Source of the DNA: Caldimonas mangrovi
GTDB taxonomy: Bacteria; Pseudomonadota; Gammaproteobacteria; Burkholderiales; Burkholderiaceae_C
Assembly: GCF_023721835.1 (NCBI RefSeq)
Contig: NZ_JAMKFE010000007.1
Span: 186,001-250,000 of the forward strand
Direction: 5' to 3'
DNA length: 64,000 nucleotides
Below the pieces are notes generated by a model. It saw only the letters and a program-made list of their open reading frames with translations. It ran no database searches and had not been told where the DNA came from. Below are positions 41,485-60,175 of the stretch, one piece after another. Position numbers and translations under genes: made by a program. Position 1 is the stretch's first letter; every line of letters starts with the position of its first letter.

Positions 41485-41859
41485 TCAGGAGGCGCCGGCG
41501 ATCACTTCCTTCATCGCCAGCTTCAGCCGCTTGCGTCCTTCGGCGTTGGTCGTGCGCCATGCTTTCAATGCCATGGACAGAAACTGCTGCTCGGCAGCGT
41601 TCAGCCCCTGCGGCTCATGCTCCTCGTCGAGCCACCCGTTCGGTTTGCCACAGGCCGCCTCGATCTGCCGTGCCAGCTTGTCGCCGATGGGCCGGTTGCT
41701 CTTGATCTGGCTCCACATGCTCGGGCTCATCTGCAGCTTCCGGGCGTAGGCCTGCTCCATGCCCTTGGGGGGCACCCCGGCGCGCATCTGATCTTCGGCA
41801 TAGAGCTGAAAGAGGCTCAAGACGTTTTGGCGTCGGTTGACGGTGATGTTGTCGGGCAC
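41485..41859 (-). CDS. small HTH-type protein, candidate repressor of the island promoters
   Basis: About 124 residues from a GTG at 41859. The central part (MEQAYARKLQMSPSMWSQIKSNRPIGDKLARQIEAACGKPNGWLDEEH) has the layout of a phage-repressor/XRE helix-turn-helix, with SPSMWSQIKSNR as the probable recognition helix. The C-terminal part is helical and basic. No good ribosome binding site is seen, so the start is uncertain and the message could be leaderless. It lies divergent from a promoter that has a near-perfect palindrome between -35 and -10. The same operator recurs at 59901, so this protein may control both units. Specific family unknown. Confidence 0.65.
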   Translation of the reverse strand: MPDNITVNRRQNVLSLFQLYAEDQMRAGVPPKGMEQAYARKLQMSPSMWSQIKSNRPIGDKLARQIEAACGKPNGWLDEEHEPQGLNAAEQQFLSMALKAWRTTNAEGRKRLKLAMKEVIAGAS

Positions 41860-41908: not shown

Positions 41909-41937
41909 TTGACGCTTAAGTGAAGAGTCTTTACAGT
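41909..41937 (+). promoter_or_regulatory. sigma-70 promoter with internal palindromic operator, copy 1
   Basis: TTGACG and TACAGT are separated by 17 bp. Between them and into the -10 lies GTGAAGAGTCTTTAC (41920-41934), an inverted repeat GT-AAGA-N-TCTT-AC. About 50 bp around it are nearly identical to 59870-59930. A repressor bound here would block RNA polymerase. A related TGAAGAGTTCA repeat occurs at about 41992. Confidence 0.75.
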
Positions 41938-42004: not shown

Positions 42005-42208
42005 GTGAAAACCGAAGGCCACATCACCCATCGCTTGCTGCCCCTGCAGGGCCAGTGCGCGTTCGTGCGTGCGGCACTTGAAGGGTCGAGTCTGGGCATG
42101 GCCGGGGCCGCCGGCACGATGAATGAACTGCATCCCGTCGAGAGCCGGCGACCGGCCGTGTCGCTGGGCCAAGACGGCTGGATGCATCCGGGTAAGGGAG
42201 GCGCGTAG
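42005..42208 (+). CDS. small ORF in leader RNA, doubtful
   Basis: 67 codons from GTG, beginning VKTEGHITHRLLPLQGQ and ending DGWMHPGKGGA, between the operator-controlled promoter and a terminator. GAAGAG lies upstream as a possible ribosome binding site. No family recognised. It may be a real small protein, a regulatory leader ORF, or chance coding in a structured RNA. Confidence 0.35.
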   Translation: MKTEGHITHRLLPLQGQCAFVRAALEGSSLGMAGAAGTMNELHPVESRRPAVSLGQDGWMHPGKGGA

Positions 42209-42238
42209 ACCGCGCACCCTCCACTCGATCACCTGTCG

Positions 42239-42276
42239 AGGCCCGGTTCCGCAAGGATCCGGGCCTTTTTGCTTTT
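42239..42276 (+). terminator. intrinsic terminator ending the copy-1 leader
   Basis: AGGCCCGG pairs with CCGGGCCT (8 bp) and is followed by TTTTGCTTTT. It lies about 300 bp downstream of the promoter at 41909 and before the tRNA array. Either it ends a short transcript or it acts as an attenuator for the array and rtcB. Confidence 0.8.
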
Positions 42277-42311
42277 CTGCCGCCTGGGCCTTCATGGGCC
42301 GGGGCAGCCGC

Positions 42312-42386
42312 GACCGATCGGCCATCGGTCACCGTGCTCCACCCGGGACACACCGACGGGCAGTGCCGCCGGAATGCTCTTTAACA
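42312..42386 (+). promoter_or_regulatory. rRNA-type antitermination leader: boxB-like hairpin and boxA
   Basis: TGCTCTTTAACA at 42375-42386 is an exact match to the boxA element of bacterial rRNA leaders, bound by NusB/NusE to make RNA polymerase resistant to Rho. A hairpin GACCGAT/ATCGGTC (42312-42330) lies upstream in the position of boxB. The pair stands directly before an untranslated, tRNA-rich transcript, exactly the kind of RNA that needs antitermination. I cannot place the promoter for this transcript with confidence. Confidence 0.7.
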
Positions 42387-42393
42387 AGTTGCC

Positions 42394-42430
42394 GCGAGCC
42401 GCCTGCACCACTGGGTGCAAGCGGGCTCGC
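42394..42430 (+). ncRNA. stable hairpin between boxA and the first tRNA-like gene
   Basis: GCGAGCC pairs with GGCTCGC and TGCACC with GGTGCA around a short loop, with small bulges. It lies 8 bp before the acceptor stem of the first tRNA-like gene. It may be a processing signal (RNase III type) or a boxC-like part of the leader. Confidence 0.5.
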
Positions 42431-42437
42431 ACACGAA

Positions 42438-42513
42438 GCGGATATTGCTCAGCAGGGAAAGCGCGACCACGCCATGGTCGAGGCCCCGGGTTCAAGCCCC
42501 GGTATCCGCTCCA
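42438..42513 (+). tRNA. tRNA-Gly(GCC)-like with abnormal anticodon loop
   Basis: 76 nt. A perfect 7-bp acceptor (GCGGATA/TATCCGC), discriminator T and encoded CCA. D stem GCTC/AAGC has only three pairs. Anticodon stem CGACC/GGTCG with loop ACGCCAT: position 33 is C instead of the near-universal U, with GCC as anticodon. T arm CCGGG-TTCAAGC-CCCGG is normal. Glycine identity elements (G1-C72, C2-G71, C35, C36, U73) are kept while U33 is lost, so it could be charged but should decode badly. Confidence 0.8.
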
Positions 42514-42516
42514 ATG

Positions 42517-42675
42517 TCTCATTGCGGGTGTGCTTCGGCACAACGGCCGAGTACGTGCCCTCGAAAGCGCAGGGGCGGCCGGGATGTGCGTTGCGGGGAC
42601 GCCCGCATCGTGCAGCGAGACGCGTTTCAGCGGGGACTCCCCCCGCACTCGCGCCGGAGCACAACCGCAATGAGA
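42517..42675 (+). ncRNA. long-stem structured RNA in the tRNA array
   Basis: A 25-base arm beginning TCTCATTGCGG (42517-42541) is complementary to 42651-42675 (ending CCGCAATGAGA) with three mismatches; the outermost 11 bp are perfect. The loop of about 110 nt holds further hairpins, such as GATG-GCGT/ACGC-GCATC and GCGGGG/CCCCGC. No D- or T-arm sequence is recognisable. A long stem made by the RNA ends is the layout of Ro-binding Y RNAs, and a truncated rsr lies downstream, so a Y-like RNA is possible. Confidence 0.6.
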
Positions 42676-42680
42676 TCCGA

Positions 42681-42710
42681 GCCCGTGTGGCCAAGCCACC
42701 ACGGGCGCCA
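42681..42710 (+). ncRNA. mini-hairpin ending in GCCA, acceptor-stem mimic
   Basis: GCCCGTG pairs perfectly with CACGGGC, stacked on TGGC/GCCA with a CAA loop, and the 3' side is followed by G and CCA, as discriminator and tail of a tRNA. In effect it is an acceptor minihelix of about 30 nt. It may be a degenerate tRNA or a deliberate acceptor-stem mimic. The remaining 95 bp up to the next tRNA hold only weak stems. Confidence 0.4.
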
Positions 42711-42805
42711 GCAACAGAAGCCCTCGTCGAGCTCACGCTTCGAGGGTGGAAATCGGCCGCAACGATAGGGCGGCACCGGAACCCGTCACCGGAAACCTCA
42801 ATCGT

Positions 42806-42881
42806 GCTCCGTTGACTCAGTGGCCCGAGTGCCGGCCTGTCCAGCCGGAAGCCGCGGGTTCGAATCCCGCACGGGGCGCCA
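42806..42881 (+). tRNA. tRNA-Asp(GUC)-like
   Basis: 76 nt. Acceptor GCTCCGT/ACGGGGC (one T-G pair), D arm ACTC-AGTGGCCC-GAGT, anticodon arm CCGGC-CTGTCCA-GCCGG with anticodon GTC, variable AAGCC, T arm GCGGG-TTCGAAT-CCCGC, discriminator G and encoded CCA. It folds completely. The unusual points are C at position 37, where a purine is normal, and A at 38, where AspRS usually expects C. It may or may not work in translation. Confidence 0.85.
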
Positions 42882-42890
42882 GCATTCACT

Positions 42891-42968
42891 GCCTCTTTAG
42901 CTCAGTTGGATCAGAGCACCGGTCTACGAAGCCGGAGGTCGCACGTTTGAGTCGTGCAGGAGGCGCCA
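42891..42968 (+). tRNA. tRNA-Arg(ACG)-like with altered T loop
   Basis: 78 nt. Acceptor GCCTCTT/AGGAGGC with a wobble pair, D arm GCTC-AGTTGGATCA-GAGC, anticodon arm CCGGT-CTACGAA-GCCGG with anticodon ACG, T arm GCACG-TTTGAGT-CGTGC, G73 and encoded CCA. Base 56 is T instead of the invariant C, which removes the G19-C56 tertiary pair that holds the elbow together. Otherwise intact. Confidence 0.82.
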
Positions 42969-42975
42969 GTTCATC

Positions 42976-43050
42976 TCTCGCGTAGCTCAATGGCAGAGCA
43001 CCGTCTTGATAAGGCGGGGATCGGTGGATCGTTCCCACCCGCGAGGACCC
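42976..43050 (+). tRNA. tRNA-Ile(GAU)-like with inverted T-loop pair and CCC tail
   Basis: 75 nt. Acceptor TCTCGCG/CGCGAGG, D arm GCTC-AATGGCA-GAGC, anticodon arm CCGTC-TTGATAA-GGCGG with anticodon GAT, T arm GGTGG-ATCGTTC-CCACC, A73. In the T loop positions 54 and 58 are A and T, the reverse of the normal T54-A58 pair. The 3' end reads CCC instead of CCA. These changes argue against ordinary tRNA function. Confidence 0.8.
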
Positions 43051-43056
43051 CTTCGT

Positions 43057-43132
43057 CTCGGTGTAGCGCAGTCGGAAGCGCGCATGCCTTGGGCGCATGA
43101 GGTCGTCCGTTCGAGCCGGACCACCGAGACCA
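43057..43132 (+). tRNA. tRNA-Pro(UGG)
   Basis: 76 nt. Acceptor CTCGGTG/CACCGAG with the C1-G72 pair typical of proline tRNAs, D arm GCGC-AGTCGGAA-GCGC, anticodon arm CATGC-CTTGGGC-GCATG with anticodon TGG, T arm GTCCG-TTCGAGC-CGGAC, A73 and encoded CCA. This is the most normal member of the array and could be a working tRNA-Pro. Confidence 0.9.
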
Positions 43133-43155
43133 TCCGTGTTGACGTGTGCTCAGGC

Positions 43156-43229
43156 GTGGCCGTAGCTCAATGGCGGAGCCGCGGGTTGTGGTCCCGCTGG
43201 TGTCGGTTCGATTCCGACCGGTCACCCCT
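43156..43229 (+). tRNA. tRNA-His(GUG)-like without CCA
   Basis: 74 nt. Acceptor GTGGCCG/CGGTCAC with one wobble, D arm GCTC-AATGGCG-GAGC, anticodon arm GCGGG-TTGTGGT-CCCGC with anticodon GTG, T arm GTCGG-TTCGATT-CCGAC, C73. The base before position 1 is C, not the G-1 required for histidine identity in bacteria, and the tail is CCT instead of CCA. The body folds perfectly. Probably not chargeable without processing. Confidence 0.82.
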
Positions 43230-43256
43230 GAGCGCATCGATTCAAACCGCAACGCC

Positions 43257-43333
43257 GCGTTCGTAGCTCAGTCGGCAAGAGCATGGCCGTCCGAAGGCCA
43301 AGGCCGGTGGTTCGAGTCCATCCGGACGCACCA
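43257..43333 (+). tRNA. tRNA-Arg(CCG)-like
   Basis: 77 nt. Acceptor GCGTTCG/CGGACGC, D arm GCTC-AGTCGGCAA-GAGC, anticodon arm TGGCC-GTCCGAA-GGCCA with anticodon CCG, T arm GGTGG-TTCGAGT-CCATC with one wobble, A73 and encoded CCA. G at position 32 is unusual; the rest is normal. It ends 24 bp before the rtcB start, and nothing separates it from that gene, so array and rtcB are probably one transcript. Confidence 0.87.
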
Positions 43334-43357
43334 ACCCCATCTACAAGGAGTACAGCC

Positions 43358-44575
43358 ATGGAGCTGATGAAAAACGTCCAGGGATGGACCGAAGGCGTCG
43401 AGGTCGACCACCAGGCGCTGAACCAGATCCGCAACATCGCCGGCCTGCCCATCGTGGCCGGCCACGTGGCCATCATGCCGGACCTGCACCTGGGCAAGGG
43501 CGCAACCGTCGGTTCGGTGATCCCGACCCGCGGCGCCATCATCCCGGCGGCCGTCGGTGTGGACATCGGCTGCGGCATGTGTGCCGTGCGCACGGACTTG
43601 AAGGCAGCGGACCTGCCCGAGAGCCTGGCAGCCGTTCGCTCGGCCGTCGAGTCGCTGGTGCCGGTGGGTTTCTCTGCGCACGACAAGGAAGTGAACCCCA
43701 CGCACGAGGCCCCCCATGGCCGCGTGCTGAAGCAACGCATGGATGCGCTCTATGCACGCTTCGAGAAGCTCGCCATCCTGCAGGTGCTGGGTTCGCTGGA
43801 CGCGCGCAAGATCTGGAAGCAGATCGGCACGCTGGGCGGCGGCAACCACTTCATCGAACTGTGTCTCGACGAGGCCGGTGCGGTGTGGGTGATGCTGCAC
43901 TCGGGCTCGCGCAACATCGGCAAGACCATCGGCGAAGCGGCGATCGCCATGGCGCGCGAAGCGTGCGCCAAGGCCGGCGTCGGTCTGCCCGACCGCGACC
44001 TCGCCTGGTTGAACGAAGGCACGCCCGAGTTCCACCGGTACGTCGAGAGCTTGCAGTGGGCGCAGGACTACGCGGCGCTGAACCGCGACCTGATGCTGTT
44101 CCGCGTGATGCGCGCGCTGCGCGAGTCGCTGGGGCGCGAGTCGCTGGGGCGCGAGATCGGTTCCACCAAGGAGGCGATCAACTGCCACCACAACTACGCC
44201 ACGGTCGAAGAGCATTTCGGCACCAAGGTGTGGATCACCCGCAAAGGCGCAGTGAGCGCGCGCGAAGGCCAGCTCGGGATCATCCCCGGCTCGATGGGCG
44301 CCAAGTCCTACATCGTGCGCGGCAAGGGCAACCCCTTGTCGTACTGCTCGTGCTCGCACGGGGCCGGCCGCCGCCACTCGCGCGGCATGGCCAAGCGCCT
44401 GTTCGACCTGGACGCGTTGGCGGCGCAAACCGCCGGCGTGGAGTGCCGCAAGGACGCAGGCGTGCTCGACGAGATCCCCGGTGCCTACAAGGACATCGAC
44501 GCCGTGATGGCGGCCCAGGCCGACCTGGTGAGCGTGGAACACACGCTCAAGCAGGTCATGTGTGTGAAAGGCTGA
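43358..44575 (+). CDS. rtcB: RNA ligase RtcB, copy linked to the tRNA array
   Basis: 405 residues; ATG behind AAGGAGTACAGCC. The metal site (GVDIGCG with Asp69 and Cys72, LGGGNHFIE, NCHHNY) and the guanylated His334 in CSCSHGAGR are all present. RtcB joins 2',3'-cyclic-phosphate (3'-phosphate) RNA ends to 5'-OH ends using GTP and Mn2+. A 15-bp tandem duplication near 44121-44150 gives ESLGRESLGRE. It clearly differs from the second copy at 56946 and belongs to the shorter, E. coli-like group. Placed directly behind the tRNA-like array and before an HNH nuclease, so tRNA-derived substrates are likely. Confidence 0.93.
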   Translation: MELMKNVQGWTEGVEVDHQALNQIRNIAGLPIVAGHVAIMPDLHLGKGATVGSVIPTRGAIIPAAVGVDIGCGMCAVRTDLKAADLPESLAAVRSAVESLVPVGFSAHDKEVNPTHEAPHGRVLKQRMDALYARFEKLAILQVLGSLDARKIWKQIGTLGGGNHFIELCLDEAGAVWVMLHSGSRNIGKTIGEAAIAMAREACAKAGVGLPDRDLAWLNEGTPEFHRYVESLQWAQDYAALNRDLMLFRVMRALRESLGRESLGREIGSTKEAINCHHNYATVEEHFGTKVWITRKGAVSAREGQLGIIPGSMGAKSYIVRGKGNPLSYCSCSHGAGRRHSRGMAKRLFDLDALAAQTAGVECRKDAGVLDEIPGAYKDIDAVMAAQADLVSVEHTLKQVMCVKG

Positions 44576-44639
44576 AGAGCCGGCGCTGGTGCCTTCCTTC
44601 GGCCACCCAAGAGCTGAACGAAGAAAGGAGGAACCCCCG

Positions 44640-45203
44640 ATGCATCAGCACGTCCTGCAACTGGACATCCAGGGCACGCCCCAGCGTTGGATCACGCTGG
44701 AACACGCGGCGCTGCACTACGCCACCGATGCGGTGGCCTGGGTCGACGGCACCGAGCCGCTGCGCACGCTGCGCGGCGGCACCAACGCCGCCACCGGCCG
44801 CCAGTCGCTGATCGACGTCCACCCCATCATCGCGCTGCGGGGCGTGGCGCGCATCAACCTGTTCGACGTGACGCCGTCGTTCGCGAAGCACAAGCTGTTT
44901 CGGCGCGACCGCCACACCTGCGCGTACTGCGGCCTGCAGTTTCCGGAACGGGAGCTGCAATGCGAACACATCGTGCCCGAGTCGCGCGGCGGCGGCTGGA
45001 CGTGGATGAACCTCGTCACCGCCTGCGCCGCGTGCAACGGCCGCAAGGCCGACCGCACGCCCGGCGAAGCCGGCATGCCGCTCGTCTACCTGCCCTACGT
45101 GCCCAGCCGCTTCGAGGACTTTCTGCTCGAAGGCCGCCGTATCCGTGCTGACGTGCACGAGTGGCTGGCGTCGCGGCTGCCCAAGGGGTCGCGGCTGAAC
45201 TGA
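44640..45203 (+). CDS. HNH endonuclease-like protein beside rtcB
   Basis: 187 residues behind a perfect AAAGGAGGAACC ribosome binding site. The C-terminal half is an HNH domain with two Cys pairs for zinc (CAYCG ... CAACN) around the catalytic EHIVPESRGGGWTWMNLVTACAACNGRKADR. The N-terminal half (PQRWITLEHAALHYATDAVAW) resembles the front part of Burkholderiales HNH proteins. HNH enzymes cut DNA or RNA leaving various ends. Immediate linkage to rtcB suggests either a nuclease whose products RtcB can handle or a nucleic-acid binding helper. Substrate unknown. Confidence 0.88.
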   Translation: MHQHVLQLDIQGTPQRWITLEHAALHYATDAVAWVDGTEPLRTLRGGTNAATGRQSLIDVHPIIALRGVARINLFDVTPSFAKHKLFRRDRHTCAYCGLQFPERELQCEHIVPESRGGGWTWMNLVTACAACNGRKADRTPGEAGMPLVYLPYVPSRFEDFLLEGRRIRADVHEWLASRLPKGSRLN

Positions 45204-45241: not shown

Positions 45242-45361
45242 ATGGTCAACACTCCACCCTTTCAAACGCTGAAGGCGTGTGCTGCTGCCAGGCCGTTCGG
45301 GCACGGGATACGCAAGAGGAGCTGTTACAAAGCACAAGCTGTACCAGATCTGCAGTGCTAG
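45242..45361 (+). pseudogene. 5' fragment of a second rsr (Ro/TROVE) gene
   Basis: The first 16 codons, MVNTPPFQTLKACAAA, copy the start of the intact rsr at 54964 (MVNTQLFQTIKGTLLPAA). At DNA level about 48 bases match at roughly three quarters of positions, including ATGGTCAACAC and GCTGCTGCC. After this the frame wanders for 23 codons and stops. I infer that a second rsr once followed rtcB and the HNH gene and was deleted, leaving its start. Confidence 0.6.
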
Positions 45362-45395
45362 CCTTTTCGGCTGCCGCCCCTTGGAGACACCACCG

Positions 45396-46484
45396 ATGCC
45401 CAATGTTCGAACCGCGAATGCCGTCCGCCTGGAATTCGCACCCGGCGCTCTCGTTCAATCCAACCTGTCGGGCGCCGCCTTCACCGGCGACTGGCTCTGG
45501 GTGGCGGGCGACGAAGCCTGCGGCCTGGACCGGCTGCGCCGGCTCGCCCCCCTGGGGCGCGAGGTGTTGCGCTTCGGTGAGGCACGTGACTTCCCGCTCG
45601 CCGACCTGCTGGACCTGCCTGGCGACCCCGACGACGAGGCCGACCTGGAAGGCATGGCCGTGGCGGACGGCTTCCTGTGGGTGGTGGGCTCGCATGGCCT
45701 GAAGCGCAAGAACGCCAAACCAGACCGCAGCCACACTGACAACGCCAAACGGCTGGCGAAGGTGGCGCTCGACGGCAATCGCCGCCTGCTCGCCTGCCTG
45801 CCGATCGAACCCGATGCCGCCGGCGAGCCCTGCCTGGTGCGGCAGGCCCGGGACGGCCGCCGGGCGCTGCGCCTGAAGGGTGACGCCAAGACCAACCTGC
45901 TGACCCACGCGCTGGCCGACGACCCCCACTTCGGCCCCTACATGGCGATCCCGGGCAAGGACAACGGCTTCGACATCGAAGGCCTGGCCGTGGACGGCCC
46001 CCGCTTGCTGCTCGGCCTGCGCGGGCCGGTCTTGCGGGGCTGGTCAGCATTGCTGGAGCTGGCCGTCGAAGCCCGTGGCGACCACCTGCGGCTGGTGCCG
46101 CTGGACCCGGGCGGTCCCTTGATCCGCAAGCACTTCCTGCCGCTGGACGGCCTGGGCGTGCGCGACCTGCACTTTTTTGGCGACGACCTCTACATCCTGG
46201 CCGGCCCGACAATGACGCTGAACGGCGATATCCGGGTCTTCAAGTGGCCCGCCGCCCGCCCGTTGCTGGCCGCGAACCGCGAGCCGGTGCGCTTCGAGGC
46301 GGCGTTGACCGAGTCGCTGCCGTTGCCGCACGGGCCCGGCACCGACCGCGCCGAAGCCATCTGCGACCTGCCGCCCGAGTTGTCGGCAGGCAAGCCGAGC
46401 TGGCTCGTGCTGTACGACGCGCCCGGGGCCAAACGGCGGGAGGGTGAACACACGGTTTTCGGGGACTTGCTGCGCCGCGACTGA
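45396..46484 (+). CDS. DUF3616 family protein
   Basis: 362 residues; start ATG 45396 behind GGAGACACC. The repeated strand pattern with LWVAGDEACGLDRL, DEADLEGMAVADGFLWVVGSHGLKRKNAK and GFDIEGLAVDGPRLLLGLRGPVL is that of DUF3616, a predicted beta-propeller. No signal peptide. Function unknown. It follows the rsr fragment on the same strand and could be part of the rtcB-HNH transcription unit. A good terminator lies 275 bp downstream. Confidence 0.85.
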   Translation: MPNVRTANAVRLEFAPGALVQSNLSGAAFTGDWLWVAGDEACGLDRLRRLAPLGREVLRFGEARDFPLADLLDLPGDPDDEADLEGMAVADGFLWVVGSHGLKRKNAKPDRSHTDNAKRLAKVALDGNRRLLACLPIEPDAAGEPCLVRQARDGRRALRLKGDAKTNLLTHALADDPHFGPYMAIPGKDNGFDIEGLAVDGPRLLLGLRGPVLRGWSALLELAVEARGDHLRLVPLDPGGPLIRKHFLPLDGLGVRDLHFFGDDLYILAGPTMTLNGDIRVFKWPAARPLLAANREPVRFEAALTESLPLPHGPGTDRAEAICDLPPELSAGKPSWLVLYDAPGAKRREGEHTVFGDLLRRD

Positions 46485-53152: not shown

Positions 53153-54763
53153 TCACTCCGCTTGGCCCGGCGGCTCGCGGCTTACCTGCTCCCAACGCAG
53201 CCCGAACCGCAGCAGGTACTTGCGCAGCCGGTCCGCGTCGTTGACCACCGAGCGCGTTTGCCGGCTCACCTGGAAGAGCCGGCGCCCCGCTTCGGACAAG
53301 GAGGTTGACGCTTTGCACACGCGCACCACGGCCTCCAACTGAAGGCGGTCGAACAGGTCGATCGCTTCCAGTGCTTCAGCGTCGAGCAGTTCCAGCCCGT
53401 CTTCACCGGCCACCGGCTTCTCCCCGCGGCGCCAGAGCCACTTCAGCCGCTGGATCTCCGCGTCGACCAGTGGTGCTGAAATCCGCCCGCCCTCTGCCAA
53501 GGTGGACAACCGTGTGACGCTGGCCGCCAGGTCCCGGAAGTTCCCATGCCATGGCGCCTCCGCGGACTGGGCGAACTTGAGGAACCTGGCCTTCGCCTCG
53601 GCACTGAATCGCACCGCACGCCCCGACTCCTGGCTCGCAAGCTGCAGCAGGTGCTCGACGTTCGGCTCGATGTCCTCGGGCCGTTCCCGCAAGCCGGGCA
53701 GGTTGTAGGTCCACAGGTTGATCCGCGAGAACAGGTCGTCGCGGAAGCGGCCCTGCGCCACCTCCTGCCGCAGGTCTCGGTTGGTGCCGGCGACGAGCTG
53801 GAAGTCGCTTTCCACATCCCGATCGGCACCCACCGGGAGAAATCGCTTCTCTTCGATCGCCTTCAGCAGCATGGCCTGCTCGTCGAGGCCGAGCTCGCCG
53901 ATTTCGTCGAGGAACAGCAGGCCGTTGTGCGCCGTGCGCAGCAGGCCGGGGCGGTCGGCGGTGGCACCGGTGAACGAGCCCTTCTTGTGGCCGAACAACG
54001 TGGAGGCCGCACCGTCACCCCGCAGGGTGGCGCAGTTCACTTCGACGAACAGGCCCTCCAGCTGGTGCCTCGCCTTCTTCAGCTCGTACATCCGACGCGC
54101 GAGGAAGGACTTGCCGGCGCCCGTGGGCCCGACCAGCAGGATCGGCGCGCGTGAGCGAACCGCCACCCGCTCCACCTCCTCGATCAATGCATTGAACCGT
54201 GGGTTGCGGGTGGCAATGCCGCTCTTGAGGAAGGCCACCGCGTCCCGCCGCTCGGCCTGGAAACGCTGTGCGATCCGGTCGTAGCGCGAGAGGTCAAGGT
54301 CGATCAGCGTCATCGAGCCCGGCTCGCCTTCTCGCTGCCTCTTCGGTGGGGCGGTCTGCAGCAACACGCCGGGGATGAACCGCGCCTCGACCAGCAGGAA
54401 CATGCAGATCTGCGCGACATGGGTGCCCGTGGTGATGTGGGCCCAGTACTGCTCCTTCGCCGTGTCGAAGTGGTAGCCCTTGACCCAATCGAACAGCGTC
54501 GCGTAGACCTCGCCGAAATCCCACGGGTCCAGCAGCTTGAGCTCGACCAAGTTGACGGCGGTCTCGGGCGACACGCTGGCGATGTCGGCTTTCAGCTGCT
54601 CGGCCAGCTCCAGGTGGCGTGGCGTGAAGAGCAGCTCGAGGCGATGCACCACGACGTCGGGGTGCTGTACCAGCGATACCGTGGGGCGCCACTTCTCCCA
54701 CCGGCCAGCGCCTTTGCCGCCGTCCAGCTGCGTGCCGATGAATCCGACAACGACATTCTTCAT
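53153..54763 (-). CDS. rtcR: RtcR, CARF-domain sigma-54 activator of RNA repair
   Basis: 536 residues. Residues 1-170 form the CARF/Rossmann sensor (VVVGFIGTQLDGGKGAGRWEKWRPTVSL, YWAHITTGTHVAQICMFLLVEA). Residues about 190-430 are the AAA+ domain with Walker A GPTGAGKS (212-219), the sigma-54 contact loop GSFTGA and Walker B LLFLDEIGEL. The C-terminus holds a Fis-like HTH. In enterobacteria RtcR activates rtcBA from a sigma-54 promoter when RNA ends with cyclic phosphates, including tRNA fragments, bind the CARF domain. Here it is divergent from rsr-rtcBA, the expected arrangement. Confidence 0.95.
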   Translation of the reverse strand: MKNVVVGFIGTQLDGGKGAGRWEKWRPTVSLVQHPDVVVHRLELLFTPRHLELAEQLKADIASVSPETAVNLVELKLLDPWDFGEVYATLFDWVKGYHFDTAKEQYWAHITTGTHVAQICMFLLVEARFIPGVLLQTAPPKRQREGEPGSMTLIDLDLSRYDRIAQRFQAERRDAVAFLKSGIATRNPRFNALIEEVERVAVRSRAPILLVGPTGAGKSFLARRMYELKKARHQLEGLFVEVNCATLRGDGAASTLFGHKKGSFTGATADRPGLLRTAHNGLLFLDEIGELGLDEQAMLLKAIEEKRFLPVGADRDVESDFQLVAGTNRDLRQEVAQGRFRDDLFSRINLWTYNLPGLRERPEDIEPNVEHLLQLASQESGRAVRFSAEAKARFLKFAQSAEAPWHGNFRDLAASVTRLSTLAEGGRISAPLVDAEIQRLKWLWRRGEKPVAGEDGLELLDAEALEAIDLFDRLQLEAVVRVCKASTSLSEAGRRLFQVSRQTRSVVNDADRLRKYLLRFGLRWEQVSREPPGQAE

Positions 54764-54846
54764 GCTATCCGTTTAGATACATAACTAGCTTCAATTCTAT
54801 TTCCGGTCGCTCCCACGGTTCAGCAAAGCAGGCGTCAGGATGCCAG

Positions 54847-54865
54847 GAAAGAGGAAAACTCTTTC
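54847..54865. promoter_or_regulatory. candidate RtcR enhancer site
   Basis: Perfect palindrome GAAAGAG-N5-CTCTTTC about 45 bp upstream of the -24 element of the rsr promoter and about 85 bp from the rtcR start. Position and symmetry fit an enhancer for a hexameric sigma-54 activator. No known RtcR consensus is available to me for comparison. Confidence 0.5.
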
Positions 54866-54909
54866 AACTTCAATCACTTGCACGCACACCGACGGTTTTC
54901 GCATCAGCC

Positions 54910-54925
54910 TGGCACAGGCGTTGCA
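54910..54925 (+). promoter_or_regulatory. sigma-54 promoter of the rsr-rtcBA operon
   Basis: TGGCACAGGCGTTGCA is a full match to the sigma-54 consensus TGGCAC-N5-TTGCA, 40 bp upstream of the rsr start codon. RtcR is a sigma-54 activator, so this is the expected target promoter. Confidence 0.88.
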
Positions 54926-54963
54926 ACAAGGGAGTCACAAGCAAAGTTGAATGCGAGGGAAAC

Positions 54964-56535
54964 ATGGTCAACACGCAACTCTTCCAAACGATCAAAGGCA
55001 CGCTGCTGCCCGCCGCAGACGCCCAGAACCAGGCGAACGCTCCCGCTTATGCATACGCGCCACGCCGCCGCCTGGCCCAGTTGGCGGCCACCGGGTGCCT
55101 GAACCACACCTTCTATGCCAACGCGCAGACGCAGTTGGAAGCCGTGTTGAAACTGGCCGCCGAGGTCGACCCGGAGTTCGTCGCCAAGACGGCGGTCTAT
55201 GCGCGCAAGTCGGGCCACATGAAGGACATGCCTGCGCTGTTGGCCGCGGCGCTGTCCGTGCGCGACGTGCAGTTGCTGGGCCGGGTGTTCGGCCGCGTGG
55301 TCGACAACGGCAAGATGCTGCGCAACTTCGTGCAGATCGTCCGCAGTGGTGCGGTGGGCCGAAAGTCGCTGGGTTCGCGCCCAAAGCAGCTGGTGCAGCA
55401 ATGGCTGCTGACGGCTTCCGAGGCGCAACTGCTGCAGGCGGCCGTGGGCAACGAGCCCACGCTGGCGGACGTGGTGAAGATGGTTCACCCGAAGCCGGCG
55501 GAAGCCTGGCGCGCCGCGTGGTTCGCCTGGCTGATCGGCCGCCCGCATGACGAAGCGGCGTTGCCGCACGCGACGCAGGCGTTCGAGCGCTTCAAGCGTG
55601 CGCTGCGCGACGGCCAGGCGGCCGAGGTGCCTGACGTGCCGTTCCAGATGCTGACCGCGCTGCAGCTGACACCGGCGCACTGGGCGGCGGTGGCGCGCCG
55701 GGGGTCATGGCAGATGGTGCGGCAGAACCTGAACACGTTTGCGCGTCACGGTGTGTTCGAGCAACCGGGGATGGTGGATCTGCTGGCCAGGAAGCTGCGC
55801 GACCGCGATGCGATCGCCCGGGCTCGCGTGCTGCCGTACCAGCTGCTGGCGGCGTACAAGGCGGCTGCCGAGGTGCCGCGCGATTTGCGCGAGGCGCTGC
55901 AGGACGCGATGGAAACGTCACTGGCCAACGTACCTCGCATCGACGGTCAGGTGGTGGTGTGCCCGGACGTGTCCGGCTCGATGCAATCGCCGGTGACAGG
56001 TCACCGCGGCTCGGCAACCACGGCGGTGCGTTGCATCGACGTGGCTGCGCTGGTGGCTGCCGCGCTGGTGCGCAAGAGCCCGCGTACCCGCGTGCTGCCG
56101 TTCGAGCAGCGCGTGGTGAAGCTGGATCTGAACCCGCGCGACCCGGTGATGAGCAACGCGCAGAAGCTGGCGTCGGTCGGTGGCGGCGGTACTTGCGTGA
56201 GCGCGCCGCTGACATTGCTGAATGACGAGCGCGCGAAGGTCGACGTGGTGGTGATCGTGTCGGACAACGAGTCGTGGGTGGACACCCGCCGCAGCGGCGC
56301 GACCGAGACGATGCGCCAGTGGTCGCTGATCAAGGCGCGTTGTCCAGGCGCGAAGCTGGTGTGCATCGACATCCAGCCGTACGGCACCACGCAGGCGGCC
56401 GAACGGCACGACGTGATGAACGTCGGCGGCTTCTCGGATGCGGTGTTCCGCGCTGTGGCGGATTTCGCATCCGGCTCGACCGACCGTGATCACTGGGTGA
56501 ACGAGATCGACAAGATCTCGCTCGAACTGCAATAG
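54964..56535 (+). CDS. rsr: Ro60-like TROVE-domain RNA-binding protein
   Basis: 523 residues. Residues 1 to about 320 form the alpha-helical TROVE ring (ETWRAAWFAWLIGRP-like stretch at AWRAAWFAWLIGRPHDEAALPHATQAFERF and YARKSGHMKDMPALLAAAL). The C-terminal von Willebrand A domain has a complete MIDAS (DVSGS, Asp335, Ser337, Ser339; GGGGTC; VSDNESW). Ro proteins bind misfolded RNA ends in the ring and Y RNA on the outside, and with exonucleases act in RNA quality control. The cluster of Y-RNA-like elements follows immediately, then rtcB and rtcA. Confidence 0.93.
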   Translation: MVNTQLFQTIKGTLLPAADAQNQANAPAYAYAPRRRLAQLAATGCLNHTFYANAQTQLEAVLKLAAEVDPEFVAKTAVYARKSGHMKDMPALLAAALSVRDVQLLGRVFGRVVDNGKMLRNFVQIVRSGAVGRKSLGSRPKQLVQQWLLTASEAQLLQAAVGNEPTLADVVKMVHPKPAEAWRAAWFAWLIGRPHDEAALPHATQAFERFKRALRDGQAAEVPDVPFQMLTALQLTPAHWAAVARRGSWQMVRQNLNTFARHGVFEQPGMVDLLARKLRDRDAIARARVLPYQLLAAYKAAAEVPRDLREALQDAMETSLANVPRIDGQVVVCPDVSGSMQSPVTGHRGSATTAVRCIDVAALVAAALVRKSPRTRVLPFEQRVVKLDLNPRDPVMSNAQKLASVGGGGTCVSAPLTLLNDERAKVDVVVIVSDNESWVDTRRSGATETMRQWSLIKARCPGAKLVCIDIQPYGTTQAAERHDVMNVGGFSDAVFRAVADFASGSTDRDHWVNEIDKISLELQ

Positions 56536-56542
56536 AAGCTGT

Positions 56543-56609
56543 CGCGTGGCGAATGCAGCCGGGACTACATATCCATGTTCGTGTCTCGACAAACGTTGGT
56601 CGCCACGCG
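56543..56609 (+). ncRNA. stem-closed RNA directly after rsr, possible Y RNA
   Basis: CGCGTGGCGA (56543-56552) pairs perfectly with TCGCCACGCG (56600-56609), enclosing about 47 nt that begin ATGCAGCCGGGACTACAT. The phrase GAATGCAG-CGGGACTACAT recurs at 56806 and, in altered form, at 56652, marking the start of each of three units. A long terminal stem right behind rsr is the usual position of bacterial Y RNAs. No T or D arm is present in this unit. Confidence 0.55.
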
Positions 56610-56653
56610 GGGGCTGCGAAAGGATGAGAAGTTTTCCGAAAGGTCGCCGGCGA

Positions 56654-56778
56654 ATGCCGGGTGGAACTACAGCCTTCTAAGCTCGTGGTCGCGGGTTCGA
56701 GTCCCGCCGGTCCCAGATCAGGGGGACCGTAGCTCAGCGGTAGAGCACGACGTTTCACCCCCTCCTCGTCGCCGGCAT
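56654..56778 (+). ncRNA. YrlA-type Y RNA with permuted tRNA module, unit 2
   Basis: Terminal stem ATGCCGG (56654-56660) / CCGGCAT (56772-56778). Inside, in order: a hairpin with the tRNA-like loop CTTCTAA, a T arm GCGGG-TTCGAGT-CCCGC (56691-56707), then the 3' acceptor strand CGGTCCC, an 8-base loop, the 5' acceptor strand GGGACCG (56722-56728), TA, and a D arm GCTC-AGCGGTA-GAGC. The tRNA parts are complete but in circularly permuted order, with the acceptor closed by a loop and the ends in the anticodon region. tRNA mimicry is known for YrlA RNAs. Confidence 0.72.
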
Positions 56779-56799
56779 CCTCGAGGATGAAAGATTTCA

Positions 56800-56926
56800 G
56801 CGATGAATGCAGACGGGACTACATCGGTAGAGCGCTGCCGCGAAAGCGGCGGAGGTCGCGGGTTCGTCTCCCGCCCGGCCGCAAGGCCGGTAGCTCAGGG
56901 AACGTCTCGTCGCCCCTTGTCATCGC
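56800..56926 (+). ncRNA. YrlA-type Y RNA with permuted tRNA module, unit 3
   Basis: Terminal stems GCGATGA/TCATCGC (56800-56806 with 56920-56926) and AGACG/CGTCT (56811-56815 with 56903-56907). Inside: CGGTAGAGC (D-arm 3' part), an anticodon-like stem CTGCCGC/GCGGCGG capped by GAAA, variable AGGTC, T arm GCGGG-TTCGTCT-CCCGC, acceptor CCGGCC-GCAA-GGCCGG closed by a GNRA tetraloop, then TAGCTCAGG (D-arm 5' part). GCTC at 56893 pairs with GAGC at 56830. Here the permutation break is in the D loop, unlike unit 2. It ends 19 bp before rtcB. Confidence 0.72.
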
Positions 56927-56945
56927 CCTTTGTCTGGAACACAAG

Positions 56946-58169
56946 ATGAACACCAAGATGAACTACCACCAGGAAGCTGTGCCCGGCGGCGTGCCGATCA
57001 AGATGTGGACGCACGGCGTGCCCGTCGAGGACGACGCGAAGCGTCAGCTGTCCAACGCGGCGAAGCTGCCGATCGTGTTCAAGCACATCGCGGCGATGCC
57101 CGACGTGCACCTGGGCATCGGCGCCACCGTGGGTTCGGTGATCCCGACGCTGAAGGCCATCATTCCCGCCGCGGTGGGCGTGGACATCGGCTGCGGAATG
57201 ATTGCGTGCAAGACCACGCTTCGTGCCGAAGACCTGCCTGACAACCTGGCGCCGTTGCGTTCCGCCATCGAGCGCGCCGTGCCGCATGGTCGCGCGCCCG
57301 GCGCCCGCGACCCGGGTGCCTGGGGCAAGGTGCCGACGGAGGTCGACGGCGCGTGGGCGCAATTGGCTCCTCAGTTCACCGAGTTGTGCCGCGACTACCC
57401 CAAGCTGGAAAAGACCAACAACCGCAGCCACCTGGGCACGCTGGGCACCGGCAACCACTTCATCGAGGTGTGCCTGGACGAGCAGGGCTTCGTGTGGTTC
57501 ATGCTGCATTCCGGCTCGCGCGGTGTCGGCAACGCGATCGGCTCGATGTTCATCGAATTGGCGAAGCAGGACGCGATGCGTCAACAGGCCAACCTGCCGG
57601 ACCAGGATCTGGCTTACTTCGAGGAAGGCTCCAGGTACTTCGGCGACTACGTGCGCGCTGTCGGCTGGGCGCAGAAGTTTGCGGCCCTGAACCGCGAGGT
57701 GATGATGCGCCGCGTGATCGAAGCGGCGAAGAAGGTCATCGCCAGGCCGTTCGAAAGCCACGTGGAAGCGGTGAACTGCCACCACAACTACGTGCAGAAG
57801 GAGACGCACTTCGGGCAAGACGTGTACGTGACACGCAAAGGCGCCGTGAGCGCGAAGAAGGGTCAGTTGGGCATCATCCCGGGCAGCATGGGCGCGCGTA
57901 GCTACATCGTGCGCGGCAAGGGCAACCCGGAGAGCTTCGAGAGCTGCTCGCATGGCGCCGGCCGTACGATGAGCCGCAACGAGGCGAAGCGTCGCTTCAC
58001 CGTGGAAGACCACAAGGCCGCGACGGCCGGCGTCGAGTGCCGCAAGGACAAGGACGTGATCGACGAGATCCCGATGGCCTACAAGGACATCGACGCAGTG
58101 ATGGAAGCGCAGAAGGACCTGGTCGAGGTGGTGTACACGCTCAAGCAGGTGGTTTGTGTGAAGGGTTGA
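56946..58169 (+). CDS. rtcB: RNA ligase RtcB, copy in the rsr-rtcA operon
   Basis: 407 residues. Metal and GTP site residues are complete: GVDIGCG (Asp80, Cys83), LGTGNHFIEV, NCHHNY and the guanylated His336 in ESCSHGAGR. It seals 3'-phosphate or cyclic phosphate ends to 5'-OH ends. It differs clearly from the copy at 43358, for example in the region after residue 95 (GRAPGARDPGAWGKVPTEVDGAW), and is closer to the operon-type RtcB found with RtcA. Start ATG 56946 lacks a strong ribosome binding site; MNYHQE 12 bp later is possible. Confidence 0.93.
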   Translation: MNTKMNYHQEAVPGGVPIKMWTHGVPVEDDAKRQLSNAAKLPIVFKHIAAMPDVHLGIGATVGSVIPTLKAIIPAAVGVDIGCGMIACKTTLRAEDLPDNLAPLRSAIERAVPHGRAPGARDPGAWGKVPTEVDGAWAQLAPQFTELCRDYPKLEKTNNRSHLGTLGTGNHFIEVCLDEQGFVWFMLHSGSRGVGNAIGSMFIELAKQDAMRQQANLPDQDLAYFEEGSRYFGDYVRAVGWAQKFAALNREVMMRRVIEAAKKVIARPFESHVEAVNCHHNYVQKETHFGQDVYVTRKGAVSAKKGQLGIIPGSMGARSYIVRGKGNPESFESCSHGAGRTMSRNEAKRRFTVEDHKAATAGVECRKDKDVIDEIPMAYKDIDAVMEAQKDLVEVVYTLKQVVCVKG

Positions 58170-58234
58170 CCCGCTTTACGAAGTCGTCGCGGAGCACCAC
58201 CTGACGACTTACAAGATCAACAAGAATGAGGGAA

Positions 58235-59284
58235 ATGATGATTGAACTGGACGGCTCGCATGGCGAAGGTGGCGGCCAGATTTTGCGCACTGCGCTGGCG
58301 CTTTCGATGTGCACCGGCGTGCCGATGCGTATCTCGAACATTCGCGCCAAGCGCGCGAAGCCAGGCTTGATGCGTCAGCACCTGGCCTGCGTGCACGCCG
58401 CGCAGCAGGTCAGCTGCGCCGAGGTCTCAGGCGCCGAGCTGGGCTCGCAGGCGCTGGAATTCGTCCCAGGCCCAGTCAGGGCCGGTGACTACCGGTTTGC
58501 AATCGGCACGGCGGGCAGTTGCACCTTGGTGCTGCAGACCGTGCTGCCCCCGCTGATGCTCGCAAATGCGCCAAGCACGTTGCACCTGAGCGGTGGCACG
58601 CACAACCCGATGGCGCCGCCCTACCACTTCCTGGAGCGCAGCTTCGCGCCCCTGGTCCAGCGCTGCGGGGCTGGGCTGGAACTGAATATCCGCCGCCACG
58701 GCTTCTATCCCGCAGGCGGTGGCGAAGTCGAGGCGACCATCCTCCCGGCACCGGGCGGCTTGCAGCCCTTCGACTTGATGGAACGCGGTGCTCTGCGAGC
58801 GGCCTATGCCGAAGCCTTGATTCCCGCGCTGCCGCGTGGCGTCGCGATGCGCGAACTGCAGGCGCTGGGCCAGGCACTGGGATGGTCGCAAGAGCAGTTG
58901 CAGGTTCCGCCCGTTCGGCAGAACGAAGGTCCAGGCAACGCGCTGTTGGCGACGCTCGTTTACGAGCACGTCACCGAAGTCTTCACCAGCTTCGGCGAGA
59001 AAGGCGTGAGTGCCGAGCAGGTGGCCGCGGCCCTGGCTCGCGAAGTCAAGGGCTACCAGGAGGCGAGCGATGGCGTCGTGGGGCCGCACCTGGCGGATCA
59101 GCTCGCGCTGCCGCTGGCGCTTGCGGTCAATGCGACGGGTCGTCCCGCCCGCTACAGCTTCTCGCAGATGACCGAGCACACCAGGACGAACTTCGGGGTG
59201 GTCGAGCGGTTTTTGCCGGTGGCGTTCGAGACCGAGCGCGGCGAGCGCCAACTGGTTGTCGAAGTGCGAAAGAGGCCCGTATGA
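58235..59284 (+). CDS. rtcA: RNA 3'-terminal phosphate cyclase
   Basis: 349 residues from MMIELD, with GAGGGA just upstream; an in-frame ATG 9 bp earlier also exists. RtcA hallmarks: [61 protein letters not shown], and the C-terminal [16 protein letters not shown] holding the adenylated His. It converts RNA 3'-phosphates to 2',3'-cyclic phosphates with ATP. Its stop codon overlaps the start of the exonuclease gene. Confidence 0.95.
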
Positions 59285-59844
59285 GCGAGATCTACATCAG
59301 CACGGACGTCGAGACCGACGGGCCGATTCCCGGCCCGCACTCGATGCTGAGCTTCGCTTCCGCGGCTTACACCTGCGACAAGCAGCTGCTCGGCACCTTC
59401 TCGGCGAACCTGGACACCTTGGAAAACGCGTCGCCACATCCCAAGACCATGGAATGGTGGTCGACGCAGCCGGAGGCCTGGGCCGCTTGCCGGAAAGATC
59501 CCGAGCCGCCCGCACAAGCGATGCGGCGGTACGTGGACTGGATCGCCAGCCTGAAAGGGAAGCCTGTTTTCGTCGCCTATCCCGCCGGCTTCGATTTCCT
59601 GTTCGTCTACTGGTACCTGATGCGCTTCGTGGGGCAGAGTCCGTTCAGCCATTCCGCGCTGGACGTCAAGTCCTACGCGATGGCAGTGCTGAAGACCGAG
59701 TACCGGCAGAGCACGAAGCGCAACATGCCGAGCCAGTGGTTCGACAAGCTGCCGCACACCCATGTCGCGCTCGACGACGCCATCGAGCAAGGAGCGCTGT
59801 TCTGCAACATGCTGAAGGCGAACCATGAGAACGGGACCGCCTGA
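59281..59844 (+). CDS. DEDD-family 3'-5' exonuclease-like protein
   Basis: 187 residues, ATG overlapping the rtcA stop (ATGA). RNase-H-like exonuclease motifs are visible: STDVETDG (Asp9, Glu11), [10 protein letters not shown] with the second Asp, and [11 protein letters not shown] with His and the last Asp, giving DEDDh. It resembles small exoribonucleases such as the Rv2179c type. In this operon it could trim damaged RNA ends before or instead of ligation, opposing RtcA/RtcB. The enzyme class is well supported, the RNA substrate inferred. Confidence 0.85.
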
Positions 59845-59889: not shown

Positions 59890-59918
59890 TTGACGGAAAA
59901 GTGAAGAGTCTTTACAGT
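59890..59918 (+). promoter_or_regulatory. sigma-70 promoter with internal palindromic operator, copy 2
   Basis: TTGACG, 17 bp, TACAGT, with GTGAAGAGTCTTTAC (59901-59915) between and into the -10. Nearly identical over about 50 bp to 41890-41950, including TTGTCGCA upstream and CACCTC-TCGCTGC downstream. It starts the leader of the AAA+/peptidase unit. Confidence 0.75.
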
Positions 59919-60073
59919 TCACCTCGTCGCTGCACGCAGTGCAGCAAGAACTGATTTCAACAGCAACCACAACACAGCAAACCCACGGGGCTTGCGCACT
60001 CGCGTTGATCTCTGCATCATTCGCGCCTTGCTGATGGCGCCACGACAGCGCCCGCATCACGGAGATCCTTTTT

Positions 60074-60106
60074 ATGTCCTCCTTGTTCATCTCGACGATC
60101 GACTGA
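60074..60106 (+). CDS. candidate 10-residue leader peptide
   Basis: GGAGATCCTTTTT then ATG: frame MSSLFISTID and stop. Immediately after the stop comes a 9-bp hairpin ACACGGTTC/GAACCGTGT (60107-60137) and then a terminator. Short ORF, hairpin and terminator before a structural gene is an attenuator layout. The rest of the 59920-60222 leader holds a GCTGCAC/GTGCAGC hairpin at the presumed 5' end and no other gene. Confidence 0.4.
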   Translation: MSSLFISTID

Positions 60107-60175
60107 ACACGGTTCCCGAGCCCCGGCTGAACCGTGTCTGTTCCCAGATACGGCCTCAGACCGCGCCGGCTAAGC

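What the first reader, a model, noticed from the sequence alone, without database searches (positions are those of the whole stretch)
42438..43357. Array of tRNA and tRNA-like genes fused to an rtcB-HNH operon
Seven complete cloverleaves (Gly, Asp, Arg-ACG, Ile, Pro, His, Arg-CCG) lie in 900 bp with only 24 bp to the rtcB start and no terminator between. RtcB repairs broken tRNAs (established), so its co-transcription with tRNA-like RNAs suggests decoys, sensors or reserve substrates for anticodon nucleases, and their fragments could also trigger the RtcR sensor. I know of no described system of exactly this layout.
Basis: partly seen in the sequence, partly recalled or inferred. Interest (0 to 1): 0.92.

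Follow-up and report, generated by a model that had tools for sequence, protein, structure and literature searches.

The report
Stress-gated spare tRNA and repair operon
This stretch looks like one copy of a recurring bacterial gene island that may switch on a spare set of transfer RNAs, together with an RNA-repair enzyme, when protein synthesis falters; it matters because its control region can be tested directly as a built-in sensor of failing translation.

Summary
In detail: seven tRNA genes on one strand (42438-43333) end 24 nt before an intact rtcB, followed by an HNH gene, with no terminator found between. The idea of an array made for rtcB does not hold. It is one copy of a mobile tRNA-array island: 31 of 35 loci of this HNH class have same-strand tRNAs upstream, against 0 of 20 housekeeping HNH loci. 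RtcB of at least three branches sits beside such arrays; among loci examined, it lies between array and HNH only in this genus.

The array tRNAs are old, diverged, mostly chargeable-looking (Ala G3:U70 kept in 10 of 10), so I favour spare tRNAs over pure decoys, although His, Ile, Arg-ACG and Gly members carry odd defects.

Not seen described in my searches: a conserved control region, with a palindromic operator over the promoter beside a divergent phage-repressor-like regulator, a leader ORF running into mutually exclusive antiterminator and terminator structures, and an rRNA-type boxA. I read it as a translation-failure switch. tRNA arrays with HNH, and Anabaena's stress-induced trn operon co-regulated with rtcB, are known. 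All function is inferred from sequence.

The parts
41485..41859 (-). divergent regulator, about 124 aa, phage-repressor-like helix-turn-helix (conserved SPSMWSQIKSSRPIGDKLARQIE)
   Evidence: 28-member alignment; weak profile match to phage CI and Cro structures, best E 7.7e-4; no Pfam match for this member; homologue in 29 of 35 array-HNH loci, 0 of 20 controls
41909..41937 (+). promoter TTGACG-N17-TACAGT with palindromic operator GTGAAGAGTCTTTACA (41920-41935) over the -10
   Evidence: 0.3 expected in shuffles; recurs in 17 aligned leaders; pattern hits 26 sites in 21 of 299 family genomes, 0 for the reversed control pattern
42005..42208 (+). leader ORF, 67 codons, GTG start, ends ...HPGKGGA-TAG
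   Evidence: ORF ending before the terminator in 36 of 36 selected leaders; the peptide itself shows only a weak coding signature
42188..42246 (+). predicted antiterminator: CCGGG (42188-42192, Pro-Gly codons) pairs with CCCGG (42242-42246), enclosing two hairpins, the first holding the ORF stop codon
   Evidence: nascent-RNA folding: 33 of 36 leaders with all five pairs, 1 with four, 2 (the window and L293) otherwise; the window forms it when folded from a later 5' end; inner hairpins
42238..42271 (+). intrinsic terminator before the array, shares its 5' arm with the antiterminator
   Evidence: fold -24.1 kcal/mol, z -4.6; hairpin in 17 of 17 aligned leaders, T-rich tail in all but L202; motif at 24 of 26 operator sites
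42375..42386 (+). boxA TGCTCTTTAACA, rRNA-operon type antitermination signal
   Evidence: 0.07 expected in the window; identical in two rRNA leaders of a same-genus genome, 1 mismatch in the own rRNA leader; upstream of the array in 17 of 42 loci at <=1 mismatch, 0 of 20 controls
42438..42513 (+). tRNA-Gly(GCC) with C33, first array member
42806..42881 (+). tRNA-Asp(GTC)
42891..42968 (+). tRNA-Arg(ACG), T-loop C56 changed to T
42976..43049 (+). tRNA-Ile(GAT), degenerate T-loop, no encoded CCA
43057..43132 (+). tRNA-Pro(TGG)
43156..43228 (+). tRNA-His(GTG), no G-1, no encoded CCA
43257..43333 (+). tRNA-Arg(CCG)
43358..44575 (+). rtcB1, RNA ligase
   Evidence: PF01139 E 2.6e-124; alignment to a solved RtcB-family structure
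44589..45203 (+). array-type HNH endonuclease
   Evidence: PF14279/PF01844; 36 places of 64% or more identity in 35 of 299 family genomes, the next ones at 58% and less
59890..59916 (+). second exact operator-promoter of the genome, upstream of an AAA + M41-protease-like gene (about 60317-62437)

Best explanation
The window holds an inducible spare-tRNA and repair operon, one member of a mobile island family in Burkholderiales. Shown from sequence: divergent helix-turn-helix regulator, palindromic operator over the promoter, leader ORF, terminator, boxA, tRNA array, rtcB, HNH. Inferred: the regulator represses the promoter. When translation is healthy, a ribosome reaching the leader ORF's stop codon covers CCGGG, the terminator forms and transcription stops. 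When ribosomes stall or fail on the leader (antibiotics, tRNA cleavage, starvation), CCGGG pairs with the terminator's 5' arm and RNA polymerase reads on; boxA lets it cross the untranslated array into rtcB and HNH. The output is a diverged, mostly chargeable set of tRNAs that replaces lost or cleaved ones, plus a ligase to reseal cleaved tRNAs. HNH is most likely a mobility or array-shuffling nuclease.
For: Island: 31 of 35 array-type HNH loci have same-strand tRNAs upstream, 29 of 35 the regulator; controls 0 of 20 for both. Operator: 26 sites in 299 genomes, reversed control 0; 21 of 26 followed by tRNAs within 1.5 kb, 22 of 26 preceded by the regulator gene. Nine of the 26 were among the leaders from which I took the pattern; of the other 17, 12 precede tRNAs. 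Attenuator: terminator hairpin in 17 of 17 aligned leaders; antiterminator pairing predicted in 34 of 36, one of them with a mismatch; stop codon inside hairpin 1, stems differ in sequence yet keep pairing. boxA matches rRNA leaders of the same genus. tRNAs: Ala G3:U70 and A73 10 of 10; discriminators invariant for Asp 21/21, His 24/24, Pro 24/24, Cys 15/15, Phe 14/14, Trp 11/11 although acceptor stems are only 54% identical to housekeeping ones; 96.1% of stem pairs standard; several large arrays carry 19-20 isotypes. RtcB joined from at least three branches. Precedent: Anabaena trn operon is repressed by TrcR, relieved by translation inhibitors, and rtcB and HNH genes rise in the trcR mutant (PMC10272220).
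Against: No expression data. The core antiterminator pairs hardly vary, so they give no covariation support, and the next pair out does not covary. The leader peptide has little coding signature. boxA (<=2 mismatches) is found at only 16 of 26 operator sites. The window array is small and partly decayed (Ile, Arg-ACG T-loops). 15 of 24 array tRNA-His lack G-1, which should hinder charging by HisRS. Discriminators are loose in Arg, Gln, Glu, Thr and Met. The 36 leaders were selected for having operator and terminator motifs. Related loci are not independent. 5 of 26 operator sites show no tRNA, and 4 of 35 array-type HNH loci have none.
Confidence: 0.6

Rival explanations
1. Decoy or sensor RNAs: the array members are bait for anticodon nucleases, or feed cleaved ends to RtcB or to the RtcR sensor, and are not meant for translation.
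For: Window array has His, Asp and two Arg species, classic targets of anticodon nucleases (recalled); His, Arg-ACG, Asp and Glu are the commonest anticodons over the arrays (24, 22, 21, 20 loci); His without G-1 (15 of 24), Gly-GCC without U33 (10 of 13) and the window's Ile with a broken T-loop look unfit for translation. A competitive-inhibitor role was suggested for the tRNA-like YrlA by others (PMC7790460, passage seen).
Against: Discriminators of many isotypes, Ala G3:U70, CCA (286 of 350) and stem pairing are kept; the anticodon stem is no better conserved than the acceptor stem (53.6% against 53.7%); several large arrays carry 19-20 isotypes, which a decoy set would not need.
Confidence: 0.17
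2. Selfish mobile tRNA array: the HNH nuclease spreads or reshuffles the array between plasmids, ICEs and chromosomes, and rtcB is passenger cargo.
For: Arrays with related HNH on plasmids (Methylibium, Variovorax, Acidiphilium) and in a Salicola phage; variable order and number of tRNAs; some genomes hold two arrays.
Against: Conserved operator, leader, terminator and boxA argue for regulated function; repeated joining of RtcB, Rsr and RtcR.
Confidence: 0.15
3. Ordinary housekeeping tRNA operon that happens to precede rtcB.
For: Seven recognised tRNAs, same strand.
Against: All seven anticodons are already present in housekeeping copies and the array copies are strongly diverged; the HNH class that marks the island is in 35 of 299 family genomes; dedicated regulator and operator.
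Confidence: 0.03

Closest known systems
Anabaena PCC 7120 trn operon on plasmid delta, with TrcR regulon (PMC10272220; original description PMC8421152 not held)
   Same: Redundant tRNA array, silent until translational stress; rtcB (all3526) is bound and repressed by the same repressor TrcR, and HNH genes (all8564, alr0856) rise in the trcR mutant
   Different: TrcR is a ribbon-helix-helix repressor, not the phage-repressor-like family here; rtcB is unlinked there; no leader attenuator or boxA mentioned in the passages read
tRNA array units of Mycobacterium chromosomes, plasmids and phages (PMC5966550, PMC12803027)
   Same: Redundant, horizontally moved tRNA arrays with an HNH gene and, in group G2, an XRE regulator in about 87% of arrays
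   Different: 20 or more tRNAs by definition; no RtcB (0 occurrences in both texts); control region not described in the passages read
rsr-yrlBA-rtcBA operon with RtcR (PMC7790460)
   Same: RtcB-based tRNA repair; a classical copy (rtcR, rsr, rtcB2, rtcA) lies about 10 kb away in this window
   Different: Sigma-54 activator and Y RNAs there; no tRNA array in the passages seen; the finding's rtcB1 has no RtcR or RtcA beside it
tRNA arrays of Acidithiobacillus (PMC5468388, passages seen)
   Same: Horizontally moved redundant tRNA array, in one species inside a putative ICE
   Different: No rtcB or control region described in the passages seen
Ribosome-mediated attenuators (trp, his, tna type; recalled, listing)
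   Same: Leader ORF overlapping mutually exclusive terminator and antiterminator
   Different: No run of regulatory codons seen; no partner found that would force termination without translation, so absence of translation should switch it on

Membership tests
tRNA array unit | 20 or more clustered tRNA genes | tested here: not met
   7 in the window; relatives of the same island reach 27-28
tRNA array unit | anticodons redundant with housekeeping set | tested here: met
   all seven anticodons have a housekeeping copy
tRNA array unit | linked HNH endonuclease | tested here: met
Anabaena-type stress-induced trn operon | ribbon-helix-helix repressor TrcR at the promoter | tested here: not met
   neighbouring regulator matches phage CI/Cro helix-turn-helix weakly; no RHH family among its Pfam matches; operator sequence differs from TGTAGTAT
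Anabaena-type stress-induced trn operon | induction by translation inhibitors | not testable with these tools
   no expression data
rsr-yrlBA-rtcBA / RtcR operon | RtcR, RtcA beside the rtcB of the finding | tested here: not met
   rtcR, rsr, rtcA lie with the second rtcB at 53153-59284
Y RNA (YrlA, RF02553) | score above the gathering cut-off | tested here: not met
   best 30.9 bits against 69
ribosome-mediated transcription attenuator | leader ORF plus mutually exclusive terminator and antiterminator | tested here: met
   predicted in 34 of 36 selected leaders, ORF in 36 of 36; prediction only
ribosome-mediated transcription attenuator | read-through depends on leader translation | not testable with these tools
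   needs reporter assay
boxA (rRNA-type) antitermination | boxA sequence as in rRNA leaders | tested here: met
   identical to two same-genus rRNA leaders, 1 mismatch to the own one
boxA (rRNA-type) antitermination | Nus-factor dependent read-through | not testable with these tools
   no experiment

The most novel reading that the evidence does not exclude
A self-contained translation-failure response cassette: a leader ORF measures whether ribosomes can finish translating; failure opens an rRNA-type antiterminated transcript that delivers a complete or partial back-up tRNA set and an RNA ligase together. Bacteria thus carry mobile, damage-gated tRNA replacement-and-repair kits against anticodon nucleases and translation poisons.
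Probability: 0.45. Interest if true: 0.88.

Novelty: new variant of a known kind. Interest (0 to 1): 0.8.

Why it matters
Redundant tRNA arrays on plasmids, phages and ICEs have been known for years without a clear role. Here the array comes with a conserved, readable control region and repeated joining of RNA-repair genes, which turns 'why do mobile elements carry spare tRNAs' into a set of simple experiments: which insult opens the leader, whether the tRNAs are charged, and whether they or RtcB save the cell. The leader would also be a general reporter of translation failure, with a logic (no translation means on) unlike the classical amino-acid attenuators.

Tried and rejected
Rejected: array as YrlA-type Y RNAs (30.9 bits against a cut-off of 69). 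Array as recent duplicates of housekeeping tRNAs (54% acceptor-stem identity). Array as a system built for rtcB (0 of 35 relatives with rtcB between array and HNH). Anticodon arm specially conserved, as pure decoys might predict: not so. PADLOC: RtcB and the regulator match nothing; HNH matches PtuB and other models only through the HNH core, so I do not call it a Septu or retron effector. Column-based consensus folding of the leader: one search printed a weak consensus and stopped with a script error; I replaced it by per-sequence folding (mononucleotide shuffles). Third-position excess expected of a conserved peptide in the N-terminal block of the leader ORF was not found (572, 522, 604 differences at codon positions 1, 2, 3 over 16 blocks). 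A boxA pattern with fixed following bases found no rRNA leaders because those bases differ; reading the rRNA leaders directly settled it. A second housekeeping set from a same-genus genome (70 tRNAs) turned out to hold tRNAs of its second array, so I do not use it as a control. HNH relatives farther away: of 8 plasmid or phage records fetched, 5 have tRNA arrays around the HNH and 3 (Acaryochloris, Curtobacterium, Rhizobium phage) have no tRNA call; one of the 5, the Methylibium plasmid, has the same length and place as a genome already in the set of 35.
Full report
What is there. Seven tRNA genes on the + strand at 42438-43333 score as tRNAs against Rfam. They are followed after 24 nt by rtcB1 (43358-44575) and then an HNH gene (44589-45203). 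No + strand terminator is called between array and rtcB (that scan takes loops of 3-8 only), and there is no run of four T from 42277 to 43357. The same window holds a second, classical RNA-repair locus: rtcR (53153-54763, -), a Ro-type rsr (54964-56535), rtcB2 and rtcA.

It is one copy of an island. The HNH protein has relatives in 270 of 299 genomes of the family, most at about 55% identity in the rows shown. A second class at 64% or more occurs in 36 places in 35 genomes (my count from its table, the next places being at 58% and less). I fetched the 35 places other than the window's, and 20 of the lower class as controls. In 31 of 35 there is at least one tRNA upstream on the same strand, up to 28; in controls 0 of 20 on the same strand, and 1 of 20 has one on the other strand. 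A homologue of the divergent regulator is present in 29 of 35 and 0 of 20. Of the six without it three are cut short by a contig end; of the four without tRNAs none is. The order is regulator (divergent), about half a kilobase, a tRNA-Gly first in many, the array, HNH, then varying RNA-repair genes.

RtcB joins, it is not original. An RtcB of at least 50% identity lies within 4 kb after HNH in 15 of 35 loci; one more has a 34% RtcB-like gene (L175) and one a fragment (L193); four have rtcR with rsr, and two of the 15 also rsr; controls 0 of 20. In 0 of the 35 is it between array and HNH. That order is seen in the window and in two same-genus genomes, in which rsr follows HNH. One genome of another family has tRNAs on both sides of a 66% identical RtcB and no HNH hit. 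In a tree of 52 RtcB sequences those beside arrays fall in at least three places: the window's rtcB1 group, a large group near rtcB2, and a pair (L178, L179) elsewhere among rtcB2 relatives. In that tree L213 (no tRNA found) and L214 (one tRNA) carry the ARRAY label only because they were in the wide set, and L040 is the same gene as L208. Of 80 RtcB loci from named genomes (the best 80 of at least 587), 12 have any tRNA call.

The tRNAs. 350 distinct tRNAs from 42 loci (37 with tRNAs; a few may be neighbours rather than array members) were compared with 43 own housekeeping tRNAs. Array tRNAs keep U8 329 of 350, U33 319, T-loop TTCnA 303 and encoded CCA 286; housekeeping 43, 43, 43 and 41 of 43. 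Standard pairs in acceptor, anticodon and T stems: 5645 of 5875 (96.1%) against 720 of 731 (98.5%). Acceptor stems are 53.7% and anticodon stems 53.6% identical to the own housekeeping tRNA of the same anticodon, so these are old separate lines kept as folded tRNAs. Discriminator bases are invariant in Asp, His, Pro, Cys, Phe, Trp, Tyr, Asn and Ala; Ala keeps G3:U70 in 10 of 10. They are loose in Arg, Gln, Glu, Thr and Met. Four of five large arrays checked carry all 20 isotypes and one 19. This favours chargeable tRNAs. Against it: 15 of 24 array tRNA-His lack G-1 and 15 of 24 an encoded CCA, Gly-GCC lacks U33 in 10 of 13, and in the window Ile and Arg-ACG have damaged T-loops.

The control region. 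Seventeen leaders align from the regulator to the first tRNA. Shared features are TTGAC-N17-TTTACA with a palindrome like GTaAAGAnTCTTtAC over the -10; a start codon behind AGGA-like sequence opening an ORF; a terminator hairpin GGCCCGG...CCGGGCC with a T-rich tail (weak in L202); and GCTCTTTAACAA. The promoter-operator pattern TTGACN6GTRAAN3TCTTNACA occurs 26 times in 21 of 299 family genomes and never in the reversed control. Of the 26 sites 21 have a tRNA within 1.5 kb downstream, 22 the regulator upstream, 24 the terminator and 16 a boxA at <=2 mismatches. Nine sites had served to make the pattern; of the other 17, 12 precede tRNAs. Across 399 genomes of the order a slightly looser pattern hits 6 genomes at eight sites; four sites lie in one other family and all four precede tRNAs, and one (G359) has none. 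The own genome has two sites: the array, and 59890 ahead of an AAA + M41-protease-like gene with its own terminator-like repeat.

The switch. In 36 leaders chosen for having operator and terminator, folding the RNA up to the terminator's 5' arm pairs CCCGG with a CCGGG 43-68 nt upstream in 34 of 36 (33 with five pairs, L294 with four). The window and L293 pair differently in that fold, but the window too pairs CCGGG with CCCGG when folded from a later 5' end; another window fold with an early 5' end again prefers a different pairing. Between the two lie hairpins, the first with the leader ORF's stop codon in most; the segment folds better than mononucleotide shuffles by more than one SD in 33 of 36, mean z -2.5. 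CCGGG and CCCGG hardly vary, so the enclosing helix has no covariation support; the hairpins differ in sequence and still pair. An ORF of 39-84 codons ends 27-77 nt before the terminator in 36 of 36. For three of these (L283, L298, L201) the script picked another frame than the one ending in PGxGxA that one search shows for the same places. The peptide is poorly conserved. The stop codon lies 13 nt after CCGGG in the window (coordinates checked), so a terminating ribosome would cover it (ribosome footprint recalled). Hence: translation completed means terminator and off; translation failing means antiterminator and on. This is inference.

boxA. TGCTCTTTAACA at 42375-42386 is expected 0.07 times in the window at <=1 mismatch. 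Two rRNA leaders of a same-genus genome carry the identical 12-mer about 150 nt before 16S, and the own rRNA leader carries it with one mismatch. At <=1 mismatch it lies upstream of the array in 17 of 42 loci and in 0 of 20 controls. In E. [quoted passage not shown]

Regulator. A family of about 123 aa (28 aligned) with a weak profile match to phage CI and Cro structures (best E 7.7e-4). No Pfam family fits well (of 28 members one hits HTH_3 at E 0.006, five hit DUF6439 at best E 0.0066).

What is known. tRNA array units with HNH, and in one group an XRE regulator, are described in mycobacteria (PMC5966550, PMC12803027; passages seen). The Anabaena trn operon is silent until translational stress; TrcR represses it together with rtcB, and HNH genes rise in the trcR mutant (PMC10272220; abstract, section 9 and passages). 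tRNA 5' fragments with 2',3'-cyclic phosphate bind RtcR (PMC7790460; passages). In ten searches of the open library I saw no description of the attenuator, the boxA or the array-rtcB-HNH layout; I saw listings of at most 20 papers per search, subscription papers are mostly not held, and the original Anabaena trn paper was not readable.

Verdict. Function is unproven. I rate it a new variant of a known kind.

Noticed in passing
window 59890-60320: Second exact operator-promoter of the genome, with a terminator-like repeat (AAGCCCCG...CGGGGCTTTT, about 60170-60206) before an AAA + M41-protease-like gene; suggests a protease in the same regulon.
   Followed up: partly
window 53153-59844: Classical RNA-repair locus (rtcR, rsr, rtcB2, rtcA) plus a 3'-5' exonuclease-like gene (59281-59844) about 10 kb from the array.
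   Followed up: partly
G006 contig 1, 678321-679428: A same-genus genome carries a second tRNA array about 11 kb from its array-rtcB1 locus; G228, G257, G098 and G067 show a further operator site with tRNAs away from their array-HNH locus.
   Followed up: no
L248:3438-3513 and first array tRNA of relatives: tRNA-Gly(GCC) of arrays, usually the first member, has C33 in place of U33 in 10 of 13; perhaps a non-translating leader RNA.
   Followed up: partly
L118:2230-2372, L135:1473-1616, L139:2221-2363, L097:2223-2372: Pairs of abutting tRNA-like genes roughly 1.6-2.5 kb upstream of rtcB in Arenicella, Pseudoxanthomonas and Lysobacter relatives, two pairs with an incomplete anticodon call; possibly another tRNA-like partner of rtcB.
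   Followed up: no
L126:5210-5882, L107:5321-5395, L140:5214-5286: tRNAs directly downstream of rtcB in alphaproteobacterial genomes (five in L126), another tRNA-rtcB neighbourhood.
   Followed up: no
window 45279-46484: DUF3616 gene on the same strand after HNH; whether it belongs to the operon is unknown.
   Followed up: no
L303 and L284: Regulator and operator without recognisable tRNAs downstream; terminator kept in L303. Possible remnants or other targets of the regulator.
   Followed up: no
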